Positions 43,790 to 50,300 of a DNA stretch of 51,876 nucleotides are shown here, one piece after another. The stretch covers positions 1 through 51,876 of the IMG/VR virus record IMGVR_UViG_3300037833_000008; one strand, written 5' to 3'. The translations under genes were made by a program, and so were the position numbers. The notes beneath the pieces were generated by a model. That model did not search any database, had not been told where the DNA came from, and was given only the letters and a program-made list of their open reading frames with translations. The stretch comes from a virus. Positions within the stretch are counted from its first letter, which is position 1. Every line of letters begins with the position of its first letter.

Positions 43790-44571
43790 TGGGCCTGACC
43801 CCGTACTACGACGAGGACGGCGTGACGATCTACCACGGCGAGGCGCTGGACATCCTGCGCCAGCTCCCCGACGCGGCGGTCGCCGCCGTTGTCGCTGATC
43901 CGCCGTATTCGTCGGGCGGCGCGTTCCGAGCAGACCGTCAGGCCGACCCTTCAACCAAGTACCGCGGATGGAGCCAGGGCGCGGACGGGGGCAGCGTCGC
44001 CCCCAAATCGACGCCAGGATCTTTCACCGGTGACTCCCGCGACCAGCGCGGGTACGCCTACTGGTCGGCGCTATGGATGAGTCAGGCATGCCGAGTCTCG
44101 TCCGTTGGCGCTCAGTGCTTCGTGTTCACCGACTGGCGCCAGCTCCCGACCACCACCGACGCCGTGCAGGCAGGCGGCTGGTCGTGGCGCGGGGTGCTCG
44201 TCTGGGACAAGGGCGTCGGTCGACCGATGAAGGGCCGATTCCGCAACCACCTCGAGTACGTCGTCTGGTCCTCGTCCGGGCCGATGCCGTCCCCCGATGA
44301 CGTCTACCCGTCCACGCTTTTGCGGCACTCGCCGCCCGGTCACGCCGAGCGGGTGCACGTCACGCAGAAGCCCGAAGGGCTCATCCGCGAGATCCTGTCG
44401 GTGGCTCCTCCTGGTCTGGCCCTCGATCCGTTCATGGGTTCGGGCACGACCCTGCGGGCGGCAAAGGATCTTGGCCGCAAGGTGATCGGCATTGAGCAGG
44501 ACGAGGCCTATTGCGAGATTGCCGCGAGGCGTCTCGCCCAGACTGTCCTCGACTTGGGCGAGGCTTCGTGA
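43789..44571 (+). CDS. DNA adenine methyltransferase (DPPY type)
   Basis: 260 residues from the ATG overlapping the previous stop; GTG at 43786 would add one residue. DPPY at residues 37-40 (VVADPPYSSGG) is motif IV of N6-adenine methyltransferases, and LALDPFMGSGTTLRAAKDLGRKVIGIEQDEAYCEIAARRL near the C-terminus is motif I, giving beta-class order. It is intact, unlike the cytosine methyltransferase. It overlaps the terminase start by 4 bases, so it may modify DNA before packaging. Confidence 0.87.
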   Translation: MGLTPYYDEDGVTIYHGEALDILRQLPDAAVAAVVADPPYSSGGAFRADRQADPSTKYRGWSQGADGGSVAPKSTPGSFTGDSRDQRGYAYWSALWMSQACRVSSVGAQCFVFTDWRQLPTTTDAVQAGGWSWRGVLVWDKGVGRPMKGRFRNHLEYVVWSSSGPMPSPDDVYPSTLLRHSPPGHAERVHVTQKPEGLIREILSVAPPGLALDPFMGSGTTLRAAKDLGRKVIGIEQDEAYCEIAARRLAQTVLDLGEAS

Positions 44572-46004
44572 AGGGTCTCACGCTCGAGGAGCTCCGGGCC
44601 GCCGTCTACCCGCCACCGCCACCTACCGCCGCCGACGTCTGGGCCGACCTCGGCTGGACCCCCCAACCCAAGCAGGCCCGCGCCGAGGCCCTCGCCGCCG
44701 AGGTCAACGAGCTCCTCTTCGGCGGCTCGGTCGGTGGCGGCAAGTCCGAGTGGCTCCTCCACCACGCCGTGGCCGAGATGCTCCTCCACCCCGGCAACCG
44801 CGGACTGATCCTGCGCCGCACCATGCCCAAGCTCACCCGGTCGCTCCTGCCCCGCGCCGAGGCCCTCCTCGCCGGCATCGCCCGCGCCAACCGCAACGAG
44901 CACACCTTCACCTTCGACAACGGCTCCGTGCTGGAGTTCGGCCACCTCCAGCACGCCCACTCCGTCACCGACTACCAGGGCGCCGAGTACGGCTTCGTCG
45001 GCTTCGAGGAGGTCACCGAGTTCCTCGAGGAGCAGTGGGACGCCCTGTCTGCCCGTGTCCGGGCCCCGGCCGACGGCATCCGGCCCCACATGGCCGCCAC
45101 CACCAACCCGGGCGGCGTCGGCCACCGCTGGGTGAAGCGCCGGTGGGTGAAGCCCAAGCCCGAGGACGTCGCCGCCGGCGGTCCCGTGCCCGGCCCCGGC
45201 GAGCTCTGGCAGGCCCAGCCCCGCGTCGAGGGCGAGGACCCGGTGACACGCGTCTTCGTGCCGTCGATGCTGGAGGACAACCCCGCCCTCCTACGCCGCG
45301 ACCCCACCTACCGGTCCCGCATGCTCGCCGGCATCGCCAACCGGGCCGTCCGCCAGGCCGTCGCCTCCGGTGACTGGGACGCCATCGACGCCATCGAGGG
45401 CGCCCTCTGGACCTGGCCGATGATCGACGGGCACCGCTGCTCGCCGGCCTGGACGGGCCCCGGTGCGGGCGCGGGCGGGCTGGTGCGCGTCGTGGTCGGC
45501 GTCGATCCGGCCGCCACTTCCGGTCCCGACGCCGACGAGACCGGCATCGTCGTGGCCGGCAAGGGCGCGGACGGGCGCTTCTACATCCTCGCCGACCGGT
45601 CCATCCAGGGCGCCACGCCTGACGAGTGGGGCCAGCGGGCCGTCAAGGCGTACCGCGACCACGAGGCGGACCGGGTGGTGGCCGAGCGCAACAACGGCGG
45701 CGACATGGTCGCCCACGTCCTGGCCACCGTCGACCGCCACGTCCCGGTGAAGACGGTGTGGGCGTCGCGGGGCAAGGCGATCCGGGCTGAGCCGGTGGCG
45801 GCGCTCTACGAGCAGGGCAAGGTGTCCCACGCCGGGACCTTCCCCGAGCTCGAGGAGCAGCTCACCTCCTGGACGCCCGACTCTGGCGACTCCCCGGACC
45901 GGCTGGACGCGTTGGTCTGGGCGTTGACCGAGCTGGGCGTGGGCGGGCCGCCGCCGGCGATGTCGACGGCCTACGACAACCAGGCGCTCGACGGGGACCG
46001 GTAG
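44568..46004 (+). CDS. terL: Terminase large subunit
   Basis: 478 residues from the GTG in the methyltransferase stop. ATPase: Walker A GGSVGGGKSEW at about residues 52-62, Walker B EYGFVGFEEVTEF near 142-154, and the ATTNPGG coupling motif. Nuclease (RNase H fold): VVVGVDPAATSGPDADETGIVVAG near 305, VVAERNNGGDM near 370, and DRLDALVWALTEL near 445. It translocates and cuts concatemeric DNA at the portal. Confidence 0.92.
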   Translation: MKGLTLEELRAAVYPPPPPTAADVWADLGWTPQPKQARAEALAAEVNELLFGGSVGGGKSEWLLHHAVAEMLLHPGNRGLILRRTMPKLTRSLLPRAEALLAGIARANRNEHTFTFDNGSVLEFGHLQHAHSVTDYQGAEYGFVGFEEVTEFLEEQWDALSARVRAPADGIRPHMAATTNPGGVGHRWVKRRWVKPKPEDVAAGGPVPGPGELWQAQPRVEGEDPVTRVFVPSMLEDNPALLRRDPTYRSRMLAGIANRAVRQAVASGDWDAIDAIEGALWTWPMIDGHRCSPAWTGPGAGAGGLVRVVVGVDPAATSGPDADETGIVVAGKGADGRFYILADRSIQGATPDEWGQRAVKAYRDHEADRVVAERNNGGDMVAHVLATVDRHVPVKTVWASRGKAIRAEPVAALYEQGKVSHAGTFPELEEQLTSWTPDSGDSPDRLDALVWALTELGVGGPPPAMSTAYDNQALDGDR

Positions 46005-46130
46005 TAGTCGCTGCATCCCTGCGAATACACAGCAGTGGGCGCACTGTGCACGGTGACGACACCGCCCCCGGGATGAGACCCCGAGGGCGGCGGTACGGGC
46101 CACCGACATGGCCCAGGAACGAAGGTAGCC
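46005..46130 (+). promoter_or_regulatory. Gap after the terminase with TGCATCCC and a hairpin
   Basis: TGCATCCC lies at 46012-46019, 8 bases after the terminase stop. A 5-bp hairpin CAGTG-GGCG-CACTG follows at 46033-46046. The rest of the 126 bases contains no convincing gene. AACGAAGGTAGCC precedes the next GTG. Confidence 0.55.
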
Positions 46131-46703
46131 GTGAAGGTCCGCATCTCCATCGAGGGCACCGCCCCGCTGCTGTGCCACAACATCCAGCTCGCCGACCCGC
46201 TCAACCCCATCGCCAAGGCCATGAAGGCCATCTCGGCGAAGCGCAAGAAGACCGAGGACGACCACGAGCAGCTCGCCCGGCTCGAGTTCGAGGGCGGCCT
46301 GTACCTGGCTCCCGGTGTCGGCCCCTACGTGCCGGGCGTGAACATCGAGAAGTCGATCGTCGAGGGCGCACGGATCACCAAGCAGGGCAAGCAGGTCGAG
46401 CGCGGCCTGTTCGTCACGGACAACGAGGTCCCGCTGCTGTACCAAGGCCCCCGGGCTGTCGAGGATCTCTGGGCCGACGTCAACTTCCGGTCGTCGATGG
46501 CGGTCAAGGTCGGCCAGGCTCGGGTGATGCGCACCCGTCCGATCTTCCGATCGTGGGCCCTCGACGTCGACGCCGAGGTCGACCCGGCTCTGCTCGACAT
46601 GGCCAACCTGTCGGCGATCTGCGAGGACGCCGGCCGGATGGTCGGCATCGGCGACTACCGGCCCCGGTTCGGCCGGTTCGACGTCGAGGTCCACGCGCTC
46701 TAA
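46131..46703 (+). CDS. Conserved phage protein, possibly Cas7/RAMP-like
   Basis: 190 residues, GTG start. VKVRISIEGTAPLLCHNIQLADPLNPIAKAM opens the protein; GPYVPGVNIEKSIVEGARITKQGK follows near residue 65, and it ends MVGIGDYRPRFGRFDVEVHAL. I recognise the general type from other phages, where it is annotated as hypothetical. The order strand-GTxPLL, a helix after PGxNI, and a Gly-rich GxGDxRPxFGRF end resembles the ferredoxin-like RAMP/Cas7 plan, but I cannot confirm this. It is the first gene of a three-gene cassette between terminase and portal and is followed by a 332-base non-coding, structured spacer. Confidence 0.6.
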   Translation: MKVRISIEGTAPLLCHNIQLADPLNPIAKAMKAISAKRKKTEDDHEQLARLEFEGGLYLAPGVGPYVPGVNIEKSIVEGARITKQGKQVERGLFVTDNEVPLLYQGPRAVEDLWADVNFRSSMAVKVGQARVMRTRPIFRSWALDVDAEVDPALLDMANLSAICEDAGRMVGIGDYRPRFGRFDVEVHAL

Positions 46704-47035
46704 CCCTTGGCTTGGCAGTTCCCGGCAGCGCTCCGCAGGGCCCGCCATGCTACGGCTAGGCCTGTCATGGCCCGGCAGGGAGGGCGACGAGCAGCCACCC
46801 AGGTGCGAGGCCTGGGCGCCCACGACCACGGCATGACACGCCGAGGCACGACGAGGCTAGGCCAGGTTCGGCAGGGCGTGGTAAGGCGCGACACCGCTTG
46901 GCGAGGCATCGAAGGACGGCTGGCAGCCACCAGGGTTCGAGGCCCTGGCGTCCACGATCGAGACACCGCCGGACCCGGCTAGGCAAGGCGCGTCAAGACA
47001 GGGCTCGGATCATCACTACCTACGAAGGAGCACGG
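46704..47035 (+). ncRNA. Structured spacer with two covarying T-arm-like hairpins
   Basis: The 332-base gap holds no convincing gene. Two 33-base units at 46791-46823 and 46923-46955 begin GCAGCCAC and end CCACGA or CCCACGA. Each folds as a 6-bp stem with a 7-base loop: CCCAGG-TGCGAGG-CCTGGG (46798-46816) and CCAGGG-TTCGAGG-CCCTGG (46930-46948). The two stem positions that differ change in both arms, keeping the pairs. The second loop has the exact TTCGA form of a tRNA T arm, but no acceptor or anticodon arm is found. Short words such as GGCTAGGC and GGCAGGG recur between the units. A strong ribosome site (GAAGGAG) ends the spacer. Confidence 0.5.
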
Positions 47036-47599
47036 ATGACCGTGACGTTCGAACCCAAGGGCGAGGTCGCCGAATGGCGACTCGTCTACGACCACCTCGT
47101 CGGCCTCAAGGTCGGCGACATCATCACCTACGACCGACTCTCCGGCATCCTCGGCCGCGAGTTCCTCCACGGTCGGGGCCCGTTCCACCGGGCCAACCGC
47201 GAGCTGCTCGCCACCCACCGCCTCGGCCTCGTCAACGTCAAGGGCGTCGGCTATCGCGTCGTCACTGCCGCCGAACACGAGGACGCCGCTCGAGGCCAGC
47301 ACCGATCCGCTCGACGGCGGCTGCGTCGAGCCAAAGAGTGGATCGAGCACACCGACCGAGCCGACCTGACCCCGGAGGTGCGATCCCGCTTCGATCAGCT
47401 CGAGGAGCATCTCTCCCGTCAGATCGACTTCACCCGCCGCCTCGACGGTCGACTCAAGAAGGCCGAGCAGGCCATCGCCGAGGTGCGCGAGCAGCAAGCC
47501 GACTCGGCCGGCGACGTCGAGGCTGTCGGGGCGAAGGTCGACCGCCTCATGGAGGCGTTGACCCGTCGAGGCATCGACCTCGACACGGACGCCGCCTGA
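47036..47599 (+). CDS. Winged-helix/coiled-coil protein of the cassette
   Basis: 187 residues; GAAGGAG precedes the ATG. Residues about 12-80 (WRLVYDHLVGLKVGDIITYDRLSGILGRE ... FHRANRELLATHRLGLVNVKGVGYRVV) read as a winged helix with a wing ending in GVGYRV. The rest is a basic segment (RSARRRLRRAKEW) and a long coiled coil (HLSRQIDFTRRLDGRLKKAEQAIAEVREQQ). It probably binds nucleic acid as a dimer. Related proteins occur next to relatives of the preceding protein in other phages as far as I recall; this needs a search to confirm. Confidence 0.68.
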   Translation: MTVTFEPKGEVAEWRLVYDHLVGLKVGDIITYDRLSGILGREFLHGRGPFHRANRELLATHRLGLVNVKGVGYRVVTAAEHEDAARGQHRSARRRLRRAKEWIEHTDRADLTPEVRSRFDQLEEHLSRQIDFTRRLDGRLKKAEQAIAEVREQQADSAGDVEAVGAKVDRLMEALTRRGIDLDTDAA

Positions 47600-47756
47600 T
47601 TCCTCGAGGCTTGACTTGGTTGGGCCTGGCAGGACGGGGCGAGACCAGACAGTGGCTTGGGCAGAGGTCCGGCGCGAGGGGCTACCACCATCGTGTCGGA
47701 CTTCTGCACTTGGACGCATCCGCCGATCGCGCCCGACGATCCCGAAGGTGGCGACC
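47600..47756 (+). other. Spacer with TTGGC/GGCAGG words
   Basis: 157 bases without a convincing gene. The words CTTGACTTGG, GGGCCTGGCAGG and GTGGCTTGGGCAGAGG echo the start of the spacer after the previous gene (CTTGGCTTGGCAG). No clear hairpin pair like the one in that spacer is present. A GACGCATCC word lies near 47714. Confidence 0.45.
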
Positions 47757-48278
47757 ATGGCTGATCCCGAGACCCCAGGCCCGCCCTACCCTCCCACAGA
47801 CCTCGCCGACAGGCTCTACATGATCGGGGTCAACCACCCCACGGGCCGAGCCACCATCCTCGGCGAGCAGGCCGTCAACATCGTGCTGCGCTACATCGAC
47901 GCGCACAGCGGCCCGGGACTTGAGGGGGCCATCGAGGTCATGACCGAGCTAGGCATCCGTGGCACCCGCAACCGGATGGTGTGGCTGACACTCCTCGGCG
48001 AGAAGCGGGTCTACGACGACATTTCGTGGGATGGACCCGACCAGCCGGAGCCCGAGATGCTGCGTCTCGCCGAGGAGGTCGCCGAAGGGTTGCTCGTCTC
48101 CTTGGGGACTGCCATCTCTTGGCTGGAGGGCGCCGAGCGGCTGGTCCGGTACGACAAGGGTGGAACCATCCCCGTGGGCCCGACCCGCGCCGAGAACCCG
48201 ACTGACGAGGCCGAGCCGGTGCAGCGCCTCCAGGTCGGCGAGCGAGTGATCCGACGGGACGAGATCAACGGCCTCTAG
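47757..48278 (+). CDS. Third gene of the cassette, unknown
   Basis: 173 residues from the ATG at 47757 (GAAGGTGG upstream). It is helical: VNHPTGRATILGEQAVNIVLRYID, IEVMTELGIRGTRNRMVWLTLLGEKRVYDDI and MLRLAEEVAEGLLVSLGTAISWLEGAERLV. No membrane segment or known motif is seen. It has its own codon-typical sequence and ribosome site. It may be an accessory of the cassette or a head-related protein, since it directly precedes the portal. Confidence 0.6.
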   Translation: MADPETPGPPYPPTDLADRLYMIGVNHPTGRATILGEQAVNIVLRYIDAHSGPGLEGAIEVMTELGIRGTRNRMVWLTLLGEKRVYDDISWDGPDQPEPEMLRLAEEVAEGLLVSLGTAISWLEGAERLVRYDKGGTIPVGPTRAENPTDEAEPVQRLQVGERVIRRDEINGL

Positions 48279-48284
48279 CCACCC

Positions 48285-48331
48285 TGCATCCCCTCGCCCT
48301 GCATCCCCTGCCGCCACCGTCGCCGGGTGGC
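48285..48331 (+). promoter_or_regulatory. Double TGCATCCC word and hairpin over the portal start
   Basis: TGCATCCC at 48285-48292 and 48300-48307 is followed by a 6-bp stem GCCACC (48313-48318) with GGTGGC (48326-48331), loop GTCGCCG. The GTG at 48327, the likely portal start, lies inside the stem, so the hairpin could limit portal translation. Confidence 0.55.
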
Positions 48332-50300
48332 CCGACCCCGAGCGATCACCGTCGACCTGTGGAGTCCGTTGAGCCACAAGGCTCTCGTCGGCGACCCCGA
48401 CGACGACCCCGGCGTCGGCGCCCCCACCTGGTGCCCACCGTCAGAGTCCAGGCGCGTCCGGGCCTACCTCGCCCGCGCCGCCTACCTCGGCGGCAACGCC
48501 CGGCTCCTCCTGCCCCCGACGACCTCCGACAAGGCGATCGCCAACCGCCGCGAGTACGGCGACCCCGCATACATCGTCGACCGCATCGTCGCCGCCGTCC
48601 TCGGCGACGGCGCCACCTGGACAGTCGACGGCGCCGACGAGGACATCCCCGACGAGCCCGACCTCCCACCCACGCCCACCGAGCCCGGCGAGGACGCCAC
48701 CGACCTCGAGCGCCGGATCTTCGACGTCCGCCTCGCCCGCTGGGAGGCGCAGGCCGAGGAGGCCTTCGCCGCCTGGGTCGACGCCTGGGCCACCCAGCCC
48801 GCCCTCCGCCAACGCCAGGACGAACTCCGGGCCTGGGTGACCCGGGCCGGCATCGACGCCGTCGTCCACGAGACCGAGCACGACACGGCCGGTCTCGGCG
48901 ACTCCGTCGTCGTCCTCTGGCACCAGGCCGGCGACTGGCCCCGCCCCGAGATCATCCCGCCCGAGGCGTACTTCCCCGTCCGTGGCGAGCACGACGACGG
49001 CGCCTTCCCCAGCAAGGTCCACCTGGCGTGGGAGTTCACCCTCGACGTCGTCGACGGCGGTGTGTGGGTCGAGCGCCGCTTCCTGCGCCGCGTCACCTTC
49101 GAGCTCGCCGAGCTGGCCGAGCTGCGATCGGTCCCGGTCGACGGGACCTTCCGGGCCTGGGCCGGCGCCGACGGCATGCCGGCCGACGCGCCCACCCTCC
49201 GCCCCGACGAGGCCGTCGAGGTCGACCTGGACCGTGGCGCCTTCGTCACCCGCGCCTACCCGTGGGACCGGCCCGCCGAGGACGAGGCCGGCGAGGCCGT
49301 CGACCTCACCGAGACCGCCGAGGACCGCGAGCCGAGCCGCATCGTCTGCCTCTACAGCGACGGCACCTGGGCCCTCGACGACGTCACCACCCGCCTCGAC
49401 GACCTCGACGAGGCCGCCGCCGTCTGGCGCCCCTACGGCGAAGGCCTCGCCTACCGTGCCGACTACGGCATCGATTTCCTGCCCGTCCTCCACACGCCGA
49501 ACACCCCGACCGGCAAGGAGCACTGGGGCCGGTCGGTCATCGACCTCGTCGTCCAGGTCCTCGACGACCTCGCCGGCGCCGACACGGCCGCCGCCTCGGC
49601 GTCGCGGTACCTCAAGGACCCGACCGTCGCGCTGGAGGGCGCCGAGCTGCCCGAGGGCCAGGCGCCGATCATGGTGCCGGGTCACATCCTCACCGGGAAG
49701 CTCACCCCGCTGGACCTGTCGCTGGGCCTCGAGAAGCTCATGGATTACCGGGAGTCGCTGCGCGACCGGGCCGCCACCAACGTCTCGCTCCCGGCCGACC
49801 TCCTCGGCCGCACCGAGGACGGCGGCCCCGAGTCCGGCTTCTCCCGGTTGATCCGCTGGACCCCCTTCGCCCAGACCGTCGGGTCGCTCCGCATGGTCCG
49901 CAAGTGGCACCTGTTCGCCAAGATGGCCCAGCGCATGGCCCAGGTGCAGGGCGTGCTCCCTGCGGGCCCGACGCCGGCCGTGCGGCTCGCCTGGGGCTCG
50001 TTCCTGCCGACCGACAAGGGCGAGACCCTGCGGATGGTGGCCGAGGGTCTCGACGCCCACGCGATCAGCCCGCAGGTGGCGACGACGCTGCTGGTCGCCG
50101 CCGGCTTCCCGATCGACGACGCCCGGGCCGAGCTGGACCGGATCAAGGCCGCGAACACCGCCGCGGCCCGGGAGGCCGCGGATGCCACCGGGTCCGAGCG
50201 CGTCGCTGCCGAGTGGCTGGGCGTCGAGCTCGACGACGCCGGCCCGGCGCCCGTGCTGGACCTCCCACCCGTTCCACCCACCGAGGACGACGAGACGTGA
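48327..50300 (+). CDS. Portal protein
   Basis: 657 residues from the GTG at 48327. This start has no ribosome site; a TTG at 48369 with GGAG upstream would shorten it by 14 residues (beginning LSHKALVGDPDDDPG). The body has the actinophage portal pattern: CPPSESRRVRAYLARAAYLGGNARLLLPP, then FLPVLHTPNTPTGKEHWGRSVI, DLVVQVLDDLAGADTAAASASRYLKDPTVAL, and the C-terminal ISPQVATTLLVAAGFPIDDARAEL. It forms the dodecameric ring through which DNA enters. It is followed by a lipoprotein gene in a GTGA overlap. Confidence 0.86.
   Translation: MARPRAITVDLWSPLSHKALVGDPDDDPGVGAPTWCPPSESRRVRAYLARAAYLGGNARLLLPPTTSDKAIANRREYGDPAYIVDRIVAAVLGDGATWTVDGADEDIPDEPDLPPTPTEPGEDATDLERRIFDVRLARWEAQAEEAFAAWVDAWATQPALRQRQDELRAWVTRAGIDAVVHETEHDTAGLGDSVVVLWHQAGDWPRPEIIPPEAYFPVRGEHDDGAFPSKVHLAWEFTLDVVDGGVWVERRFLRRVTFELAELAELRSVPVDGTFRAWAGADGMPADAPTLRPDEAVEVDLDRGAFVTRAYPWDRPAEDEAGEAVDLTETAEDREPSRIVCLYSDGTWALDDVTTRLDDLDEAAAVWRPYGEGLAYRADYGIDFLPVLHTPNTPTGKEHWGRSVIDLVVQVLDDLAGADTAAASASRYLKDPTVALEGAELPEGQAPIMVPGHILTGKLTPLDLSLGLEKLMDYRESLRDRAATNVSLPADLLGRTEDGGPESGFSRLIRWTPFAQTVGSLRMVRKWHLFAKMAQRMAQVQGVLPAGPTPAVRLAWGSFLPTDKGETLRMVAEGLDAHAISPQVATTLLVAAGFPIDDARAELDRIKAANTAAAREAADATGSERVAAEWLGVELDDAGPAPVLDLPPVPPTEDDET

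What the first reader, a model, noticed from the sequence alone, without database searches (positions are those of the whole stretch)
46131..48278. Three-gene cassette with structured spacer between terminase and portal: candidate undescribed system
Terminase and portal genes are normally adjacent. Here they are separated by a possible RAMP/Cas7-like protein, a winged-helix/coiled-coil protein and a helical protein, with spacers of 332 and 157 bases in a genome whose other genes mostly overlap. The first spacer holds paired structured units. An RNA-binding protein acting with a small structured RNA made from its own spacer would fit this layout, for example in control of packaging or defence against competing phages.
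Basis: inference. Interest (0 to 1): 0.72.

Follow-up and report, generated by a model that had tools for sequence, protein, structure and literature searches.

The report
Phage VIPR system with tRNA-like tails
Between its DNA-packaging and portal genes, this phage of high-GC bacteria carries a VIPR system, the newly described CRISPR-like RNA-guided weapon used between viruses, and its guide RNAs end in a small fold that imitates part of a transfer RNA, a feature the published description's main text does not mention.

Summary
The 190-residue protein is a Vipr: it matches the solved SUSP1 Vipr (E=6.7e-38) and its predicted fold matches Cas7/Csm3 proteins. The 332- and 157-base spacers are guide-RNA arrays: pentamers GGY-NN in register, beaten by 0 of 2000 shuffles. 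All 87 vipr loci scanned carry such arrays (282 on the vipr strand, 2 on the other). The second protein is the conserved partner gene (vap), found in 43 relative loci. The third protein has no relatives and is not shown to belong. Phages with related terminase and portal genes lack the cassette, so it is cargo. VIPR systems were described in an April 2026 preprint, so this is a new member. What looks new is the guide-RNA tail. Two tails here and about 50 in related loci form an acceptor-like helix plus a T-arm hairpin (GTTCGANNC) with a covarying pseudoknot and a D-loop/T-loop-type contact, like a tRNA elbow. A role for tRNA-processing enzymes is inferred, not shown. I found no convincing targets for these guides.

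The parts
44568..46004 (+). Terminase large subunit (left neighbour, not part of the system)
   Evidence: phrog_979 E=9.6e-73, Pfam Terminase_6C E=2.7e-21
46131..46703 (+). vipr: RAMP/Cas7-like guide-RNA-binding protein, 190 aa
   Evidence: PDB 36pp_D 'SUSP1 Vipr protein' E=6.7e-38; phrog_4652 E=6.5e-63; AF2 pLDDT 94.6 and Csm3/Cas7 fold hits
46709..46778 (+). vrRNA 1 repeat tract, 14 pentamers (GGY-NN, imperfect)
46782..46821 (+). vrRNA 1 tail: 5-bp acceptor-like helix, linker, T-arm-like hairpin (loop TGCGAGG)
   Evidence: independent covariance model R2, E=1.4e-8; covariation
46830..46909 (+). vrRNA 2 repeat tract, 16 pentamers, the most regular of the window
46914..46953 (+). vrRNA 2 tail: tRNA-elbow-like, loop TTCGAGG
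   Evidence: independent covariance model R2, E=1.6e-10; covariation
46967..47006 (+). Possible short third tract, 8 units, without a recognisable tail
   Evidence: GGY positions in one register, listed; below the scan threshold, so tentative
47036..47599 (+). vap: accessory protein, 187 aa; DNA-binding role inferred
   Evidence: phrog_5926 E=4.7e-11; relatives in 43 vipr loci, mostly directly after vipr; aligned relative in phage MakoManhole annotated 'DNA binding protein'
47608..47652 (+). vrRNA 4 repeat tract, 9 pentamers (G[GA]Y-NN)
   Evidence: 0/2000 shuffles
47659..47710 (+). Long hairpin after tract 4, candidate tail of another kind
   Evidence: predicted fold -36.3 kcal/mol for 47653-47712; single-sequence prediction only
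47757..48278 (+). ORF3, 173 aa, unknown; probably not part of the VIPR system
   Evidence: no relative in Pfam, PHROGs, NCBIfam, phages or fetched loci
48327..50300 (+). Portal protein (right neighbour, not part of the system)
   Evidence: 42% identical to L113 protein that matches phrog_64 portal E=2.3e-13

Best explanation
This is a VIPR system. The Vipr protein coats a guide RNA (vrRNA) made from the spacers, probably one subunit per GGY-NN pentamer, and the NN pairs select a double-stranded DNA target read with one skipped base between pairs. The bound complex blocks transcription of genes of competing phages or satellites. The neighbouring vap protein probably helps DNA binding. The cassette is cargo inserted between terminase and portal. 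In this phage at least two vrRNAs lie head to tail and are presumably co-transcribed. Each ends in a 40-base tail that folds like a tRNA elbow (acceptor-like helix, T-arm, D-loop-like linker locked by a pseudoknot), which caps the RNA, anchors Vipr or marks where the precursor is cut. Shown here: protein family and fold, repeat arrays, tail structure by covariation, vap conservation, cargo position. Inferred from the published SUSP1 and P. fulva systems: guide loading, one-base-skip code, silencing. Speculative: who cuts the precursor.
For: Vipr homology and Cas7/Csm3 fold; arrays beyond chance and on the vipr strand in 87 of 87 vipr loci scanned, 282 against 2; tails found by an independent model with 110 double changes in 14 pairs against 26.6 shuffled and pseudoknot pair 14-29 in all four Watson-Crick types, 0/10000 shuffles; vap in 43 loci; phages with related terminase and portal lack the cassette; function of VIPR from PMC13142463.
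Against: The repeat tracts are less regular than in many relatives (53% and 69% exact GGY, median 73%), so one or more guides may be decaying. No convincing target was found. No promoter was found. Expression is untested.
Confidence: 0.9

Rival explanations
1. The tail is only a passive, Vipr-bound cap. The T-loop is a generic RNA folding motif reached independently, and no tRNA enzyme is involved.
For: The published SUSP1 clade has a structured tail with a pseudoknot and no tRNA likeness is reported; the nearest relatives L002 and L003 have other tails; no CCA end or anticodon arm; ARAGORN and Rfam find no tRNA.
Against: The likeness reaches the D-loop/T-loop contacts and the invariant G53-C61 equivalent, more than a T-loop needs. 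Arrays are so closely packed (median 8 bases) that something must cut between them.
Confidence: 0.5
2. A decaying VIPR system: vipr is kept but the guides are losing their repeat pattern and no longer work.
For: Tracts 1 and 2 have 53% and 69% exact GGY; tract 3 is short and has no tail; tract 4 slips register.
Against: Both tails keep every pair with compensatory differences between them (GGGCG/CGCCC against GGACG/CGTCC); 127 of 282 relatives' tracts are below 70% too; vipr and vap are intact.
Confidence: 0.12
3. The cassette controls the phage's own packaging.
For: Position between terminase and portal; in L002 it lies inside a terminase gene.
Against: Other phages carry it among replication, tail or other genes; phages with related terminase and portal lack it; no tract has a near-full match in the window itself.
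Confidence: 0.03

Closest known systems
VIPR system of Escherichia phage SUSP1 and the Pseudomonas fulva prophage (PMC13142463)
   Same: Vipr protein (phmmer E=6.7e-38), GGY-NN arrays in the spacers on the vipr strand, structured 3' tail with a pseudoknot, an accessory gene, carried by a phage.
   Different: High-GC phage; tail is a tRNA-elbow-like fold, unlike the wV8 (SUSP1-like) tail; vap is not detectably related to the gene after vipr in wV8 (not hit in L012); arrays sit between vipr and vap as well as after vap; cassette is between terminase and portal.
Cas7/Csm3 RAMP proteins of CRISPR type III and VII
   Same: Predicted fold; best structural hits (E down to 2.8e-5).
   Different: About 12% identity, single RAMP gene, no CRISPR array and no cas genes in the cassette; guide of pentamer repeats instead of spacers.
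tRNA-like elements such as mascRNA/MALAT1 (Rfam RF01684)
   Same: Acceptor-like helix plus T-arm on the 3' side of a longer RNA; weak sub-threshold hit overlapping tail 2 (16 bits, E=4.5). RNase P makes the 5' cut in MALAT1 (general knowledge).
   Different: Bacterial phage; no anticodon arm; linker of about 11 bases; no CCA; no significant Rfam match.

Membership tests
VIPR system | Vipr protein, a minimal RAMP homologue | tested here: met
   PDB 36pp_D E=6.7e-38; Cas7/Csm3 fold
VIPR system | vrRNAs of 9-16 YNNGG repeats (GGY/NN) in the flanking intergenic sequence | tested here: met
   14, 16 and 9 units, 0/2000 shuffles; regularity at the low side of relatives
VIPR system | Conserved structured 3' tail after the repeats | tested here: met
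   Tails after tracts 1 and 2, covariation and pseudoknot; tract 4 has another hairpin, tract 3 none
VIPR system | Adjacent vap gene | tested here: met
   ORF2 relatives accompany vipr in 43 loci; which of vap1-6 it is could not be tested, the supplement is not readable here
VIPR system | Carried by phages or proviruses | tested here: met
   IMG/VR record with terminase and portal
VIPR system | vrRNAs expressed and bound to Vipr | not testable with these tools
   needs small-RNA sequencing and pull-down
VIPR system | Targets in competing mobile elements read with a one-base skip | tested here: inconclusive
   Best: 10 contiguous units (20/20 bases, 22/32 overall) in three related contigs, skip at the wobble position, near chance level; others chance
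CRISPR-Cas class 1 | CRISPR array of identical repeats plus several cas genes | tested here: not met
   No repeat family of CRISPR type in 45900-48400; one RAMP gene only; neighbours are phage genes
tRNA gene | Full cloverleaf with anticodon | tested here: not met
   ARAGORN none; Rfam none at gathering threshold
tRNA-like elbow (works like) | G53-C61 pair, T54-T55-C56-R57-A58 loop, D-loop GG contacting it, helix directly abutting the T-arm | tested here: met
   Equivalents G22-C30 and G10/C25 invariant in 32 tails, 9-24 covaries GT/AG, helices 100% paired; the three-dimensional fold itself was not tested

The most novel reading that the evidence does not exclude
In this VIPR lineage the guide-RNA tail is a functional tRNA mimic: tandem vrRNAs, packed with a median of 8 bases between one tail and the next array, are cut from one transcript by host tRNA enzymes (RNase P and/or RNase Z), a processing route besides the hammerhead-interspersed arrays of the preprint.
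Probability: 0.35. Interest if true: 0.82.

Novelty: new variant of a known kind. Interest (0 to 1): 0.62.

Why it matters
VIPR is a newly proposed ancestor of CRISPR, tested so far mainly in E. coli and Pseudomonas examples. This locus and its relatives show the system in phages of high-GC bacteria (relatives infect Mycobacterium and Gordonia), suggest functions for two anonymous phage families (phrog_4652 as Vipr, phrog_5926 as its accessory), and supply a guide-RNA tail, supported by covariation, that imitates a tRNA elbow. That makes guide processing and Vipr-tail recognition directly testable, and gives a short motif for finding further systems.

Tried and rejected
Targets by the one-base-skip rule: scans with tract 2 (viral contigs, bacterial genomes), tracts 1 and 4 (viral contigs), and an array of the M. 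abscessus prophage prophiBWHA-1 gave only matches near chance level. Rfam: no match at gathering threshold in the window or L002. Single-sequence AlphaFold failed (pLDDT 34.5); the alignment-based model succeeded. Promoter scan: no sigma-70 site in the cassette, uninformative for this kind of host. tblastn with vap and ORF3 in named phages found nothing. The preprint's supplement could not be read, so I cannot exclude that its figures show T-loop tails; its main text does not mention tRNA, and no other VIPR paper is in the library.

Full report
WHAT IS THERE. The three ORFs and the two spacers are at the coordinates given, between a terminase large subunit and a portal. The 190-residue protein belongs to phrog_4652 (unknown function, E=6.5e-63). 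It matches one solved structure by sequence, PDB 36pp chain D, 'SUSP1 Vipr protein', E=6.7e-38 over residues 3-187. An alignment-based AlphaFold2 model (48 sequences, pLDDT 94.6) has Csm3/Cas7 proteins of type III and VII CRISPR complexes as its best Foldseek hits (E down to 2.8e-5). Named phages hold 130 records with relatives; in the rows shown they are annotated as hypothetical or not at all.

THE KNOWN SYSTEM. A preprint of April 2026 (PMC13142463, read) describes VIPR: a small RAMP protein and ~100-nt vrRNAs made of 9-16 YNNGG repeats followed by an invariable structured tail. The NN pairs recognise DNA with one base skipped between pairs, the complex silences transcription, and natural guides target competing phages and satellites.

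THE ARRAYS. In this window the spacers hold GGY-NN pentamers in register: 46709-46778 (14 units), 46830-46909 (16), possibly 46967-47006 (8) and 47608-47652 (9). Scores exceed all 2000 dinucleotide shuffles in both spacers, while the sequence before vipr and before the portal shows nothing. Of 87 vipr loci scanned (the window and relatives), every one has such tracts within 3 kb: 282 on the vipr strand and 2 on the other. This is independent support for both the repeat and its strand. The window's regularity (53% and 69% exact GGY) is on the low side but within the range (median 73%).

THE TAILS. In 51 places in the fetched loci, all on the vipr strand and near vipr, with 1 on the other strand, the same design of about 40 bases recurs: a 5-pair helix; a linker of about 11 bases, typically NNNGGCANNCA; a 6-pair hairpin with a 7-base loop TTCGANN; and the other half of the helix directly after it. 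T-arms of this kind follow 48 of 288 arrays, with 0.64 expected in shuffled sequence. In 32 distinct tails the 14 pairs named are formed in 97.3% of cells (70.3% shuffled; 47% or less when slid), with 110 double changes (26.6 shuffled). The tails were collected by requiring the two helices, so their 100% pairing is partly by construction; the double changes, and everything in the linker and loop, are not.

The linker-loop pair 14-29 was not part of the search. It occurs as AU, CG, GC and UA. Among tails with G at loop position 6, 26 of 27 pair, against 11.5 on average in shuffles (0 of 10000 reach it). It holds with one tail per locus and even changes compensatorily between tandem copies of one locus (L041, L048, L057, L040). 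Mutual information, computed without a structure, finds this pair, the linker pair 7-13 and the contact 9-24 (GT in 26, AG in 4) among its strongest signals. G10, C25, G22 and C30 never vary. By analogy 9-24, 10-25 and 22-30 correspond to tRNA G18-psi55, G19-C56 and G53-C61. The tail is therefore a tRNA-elbow look-alike: acceptor-like helix, T-arm, D-loop-like linker.

A covariance model built without window sequences finds the two window tails at E=1.6e-10 and 1.4e-8 (next best 0.19), and 64 matches in 669 kb of loci, all on the vipr strand. In 17 whole phage records, 16 have matches at E<=0.001, and every match lies in the VIPR locus (compared with the contig ranges). The wV8 tails (SUSP1-like phage) look different, an H-type pseudoknot by eye, and the closest relatives of this window's Vipr, L002 and L003, have other tails. 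Tails have thus been exchanged or replaced within the family.

PROCESSING. Between one tail and the first GGY of the next array lie a median of 8 bases, usually beginning RCGC. There is no room for a promoter, so tandem vrRNAs are presumably cut from one transcript (inference). The preprint reports hammerhead-interspersed arrays in other types; a tRNA-like element at the same place suggests RNase P or RNase Z, but nothing here shows it.

THE PARTNER GENES. The second protein has relatives in 43 of the vipr loci, mostly immediately after vipr. It belongs to phrog_5926, one aligned relative is annotated as DNA binding, and Pfam matches are weak. It is the vap of this lineage. The third protein has no relative anywhere searched, so it is not counted as part of the system.

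THE SITE. Phages with the nearest terminases (L112, L113, L114) and more distant ones with a related portal (L124-L126) have terminase and portal adjacent or separated by another small insert, without vipr. The cassette is cargo. In L002 it sits inside a terminase gene, between profile positions 380 and 388 of phrog_9. In LittleE, MakoManhole, Trine, prophiBWHA-1, Medea1 and wV8 it lies elsewhere.

TARGETS. Decoded guides were searched with the one-base skip. The best match of tract 2 is 10 consecutive units in a short open reading frame of three related contigs, with the skip at the wobble position, but 22/32 overall and a chance expectation of roughly 0.02-0.05 (my estimate from the number of 8-unit matches). 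It is a lead, not a result. Others are at chance level.

VERDICT. A real VIPR system, new member, in a lineage whose guide RNAs carry a tRNA-elbow-like tail that the main text of the only paper found does not describe.

Noticed in passing
L002 4916-7719: The VIPR cassette of the closest relative (Vipr 71% identical) splits a terminase large subunit gene: the N-terminal half matches phrog_9 positions 56-380 and the C-terminal half 388-662, with vipr, vap and two arrays between. No Rfam intron was found.
   Followed up: partly
L041, L048, L057, L040 tails: The pseudoknot pair of the tails differs between tandem copies of one locus (U-A, G-C, A-U, C-G) while staying paired, as if neighbouring tails are kept from pairing with each other.
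   Followed up: partly
L101 5696-5731, also L095 and L096: Ten consecutive NN units of window tract 2 match with one-base skip, antisense to a short ORF that by eye resembles a phage tail-completion protein; the skip falls on wobble positions. Near chance level, possible target family.
   Followed up: partly
L112 6404-7297: The phage with the nearest terminase (69%) has a different small insert of unknown function between terminase and portal, so the site may be a general cargo site.
   Followed up: no
L005 7068-7398: Nearly continuous run of about 63 pentamers in six abutting tracts, most ending in GGCAG, like the staggered overlapping arrays named in the preprint.
   Followed up: no
L012 2750-2807 and 4143-4200: In Escherichia phage wV8 the deposited repeat regions 'DR_4' coincide with vrRNA tails on both sides of vipr.
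   Followed up: no
window 48282-48309: Two exact copies of CCCTGCATCCCCT, 15 bases apart, just before the portal gene; function unknown.
   Followed up: no
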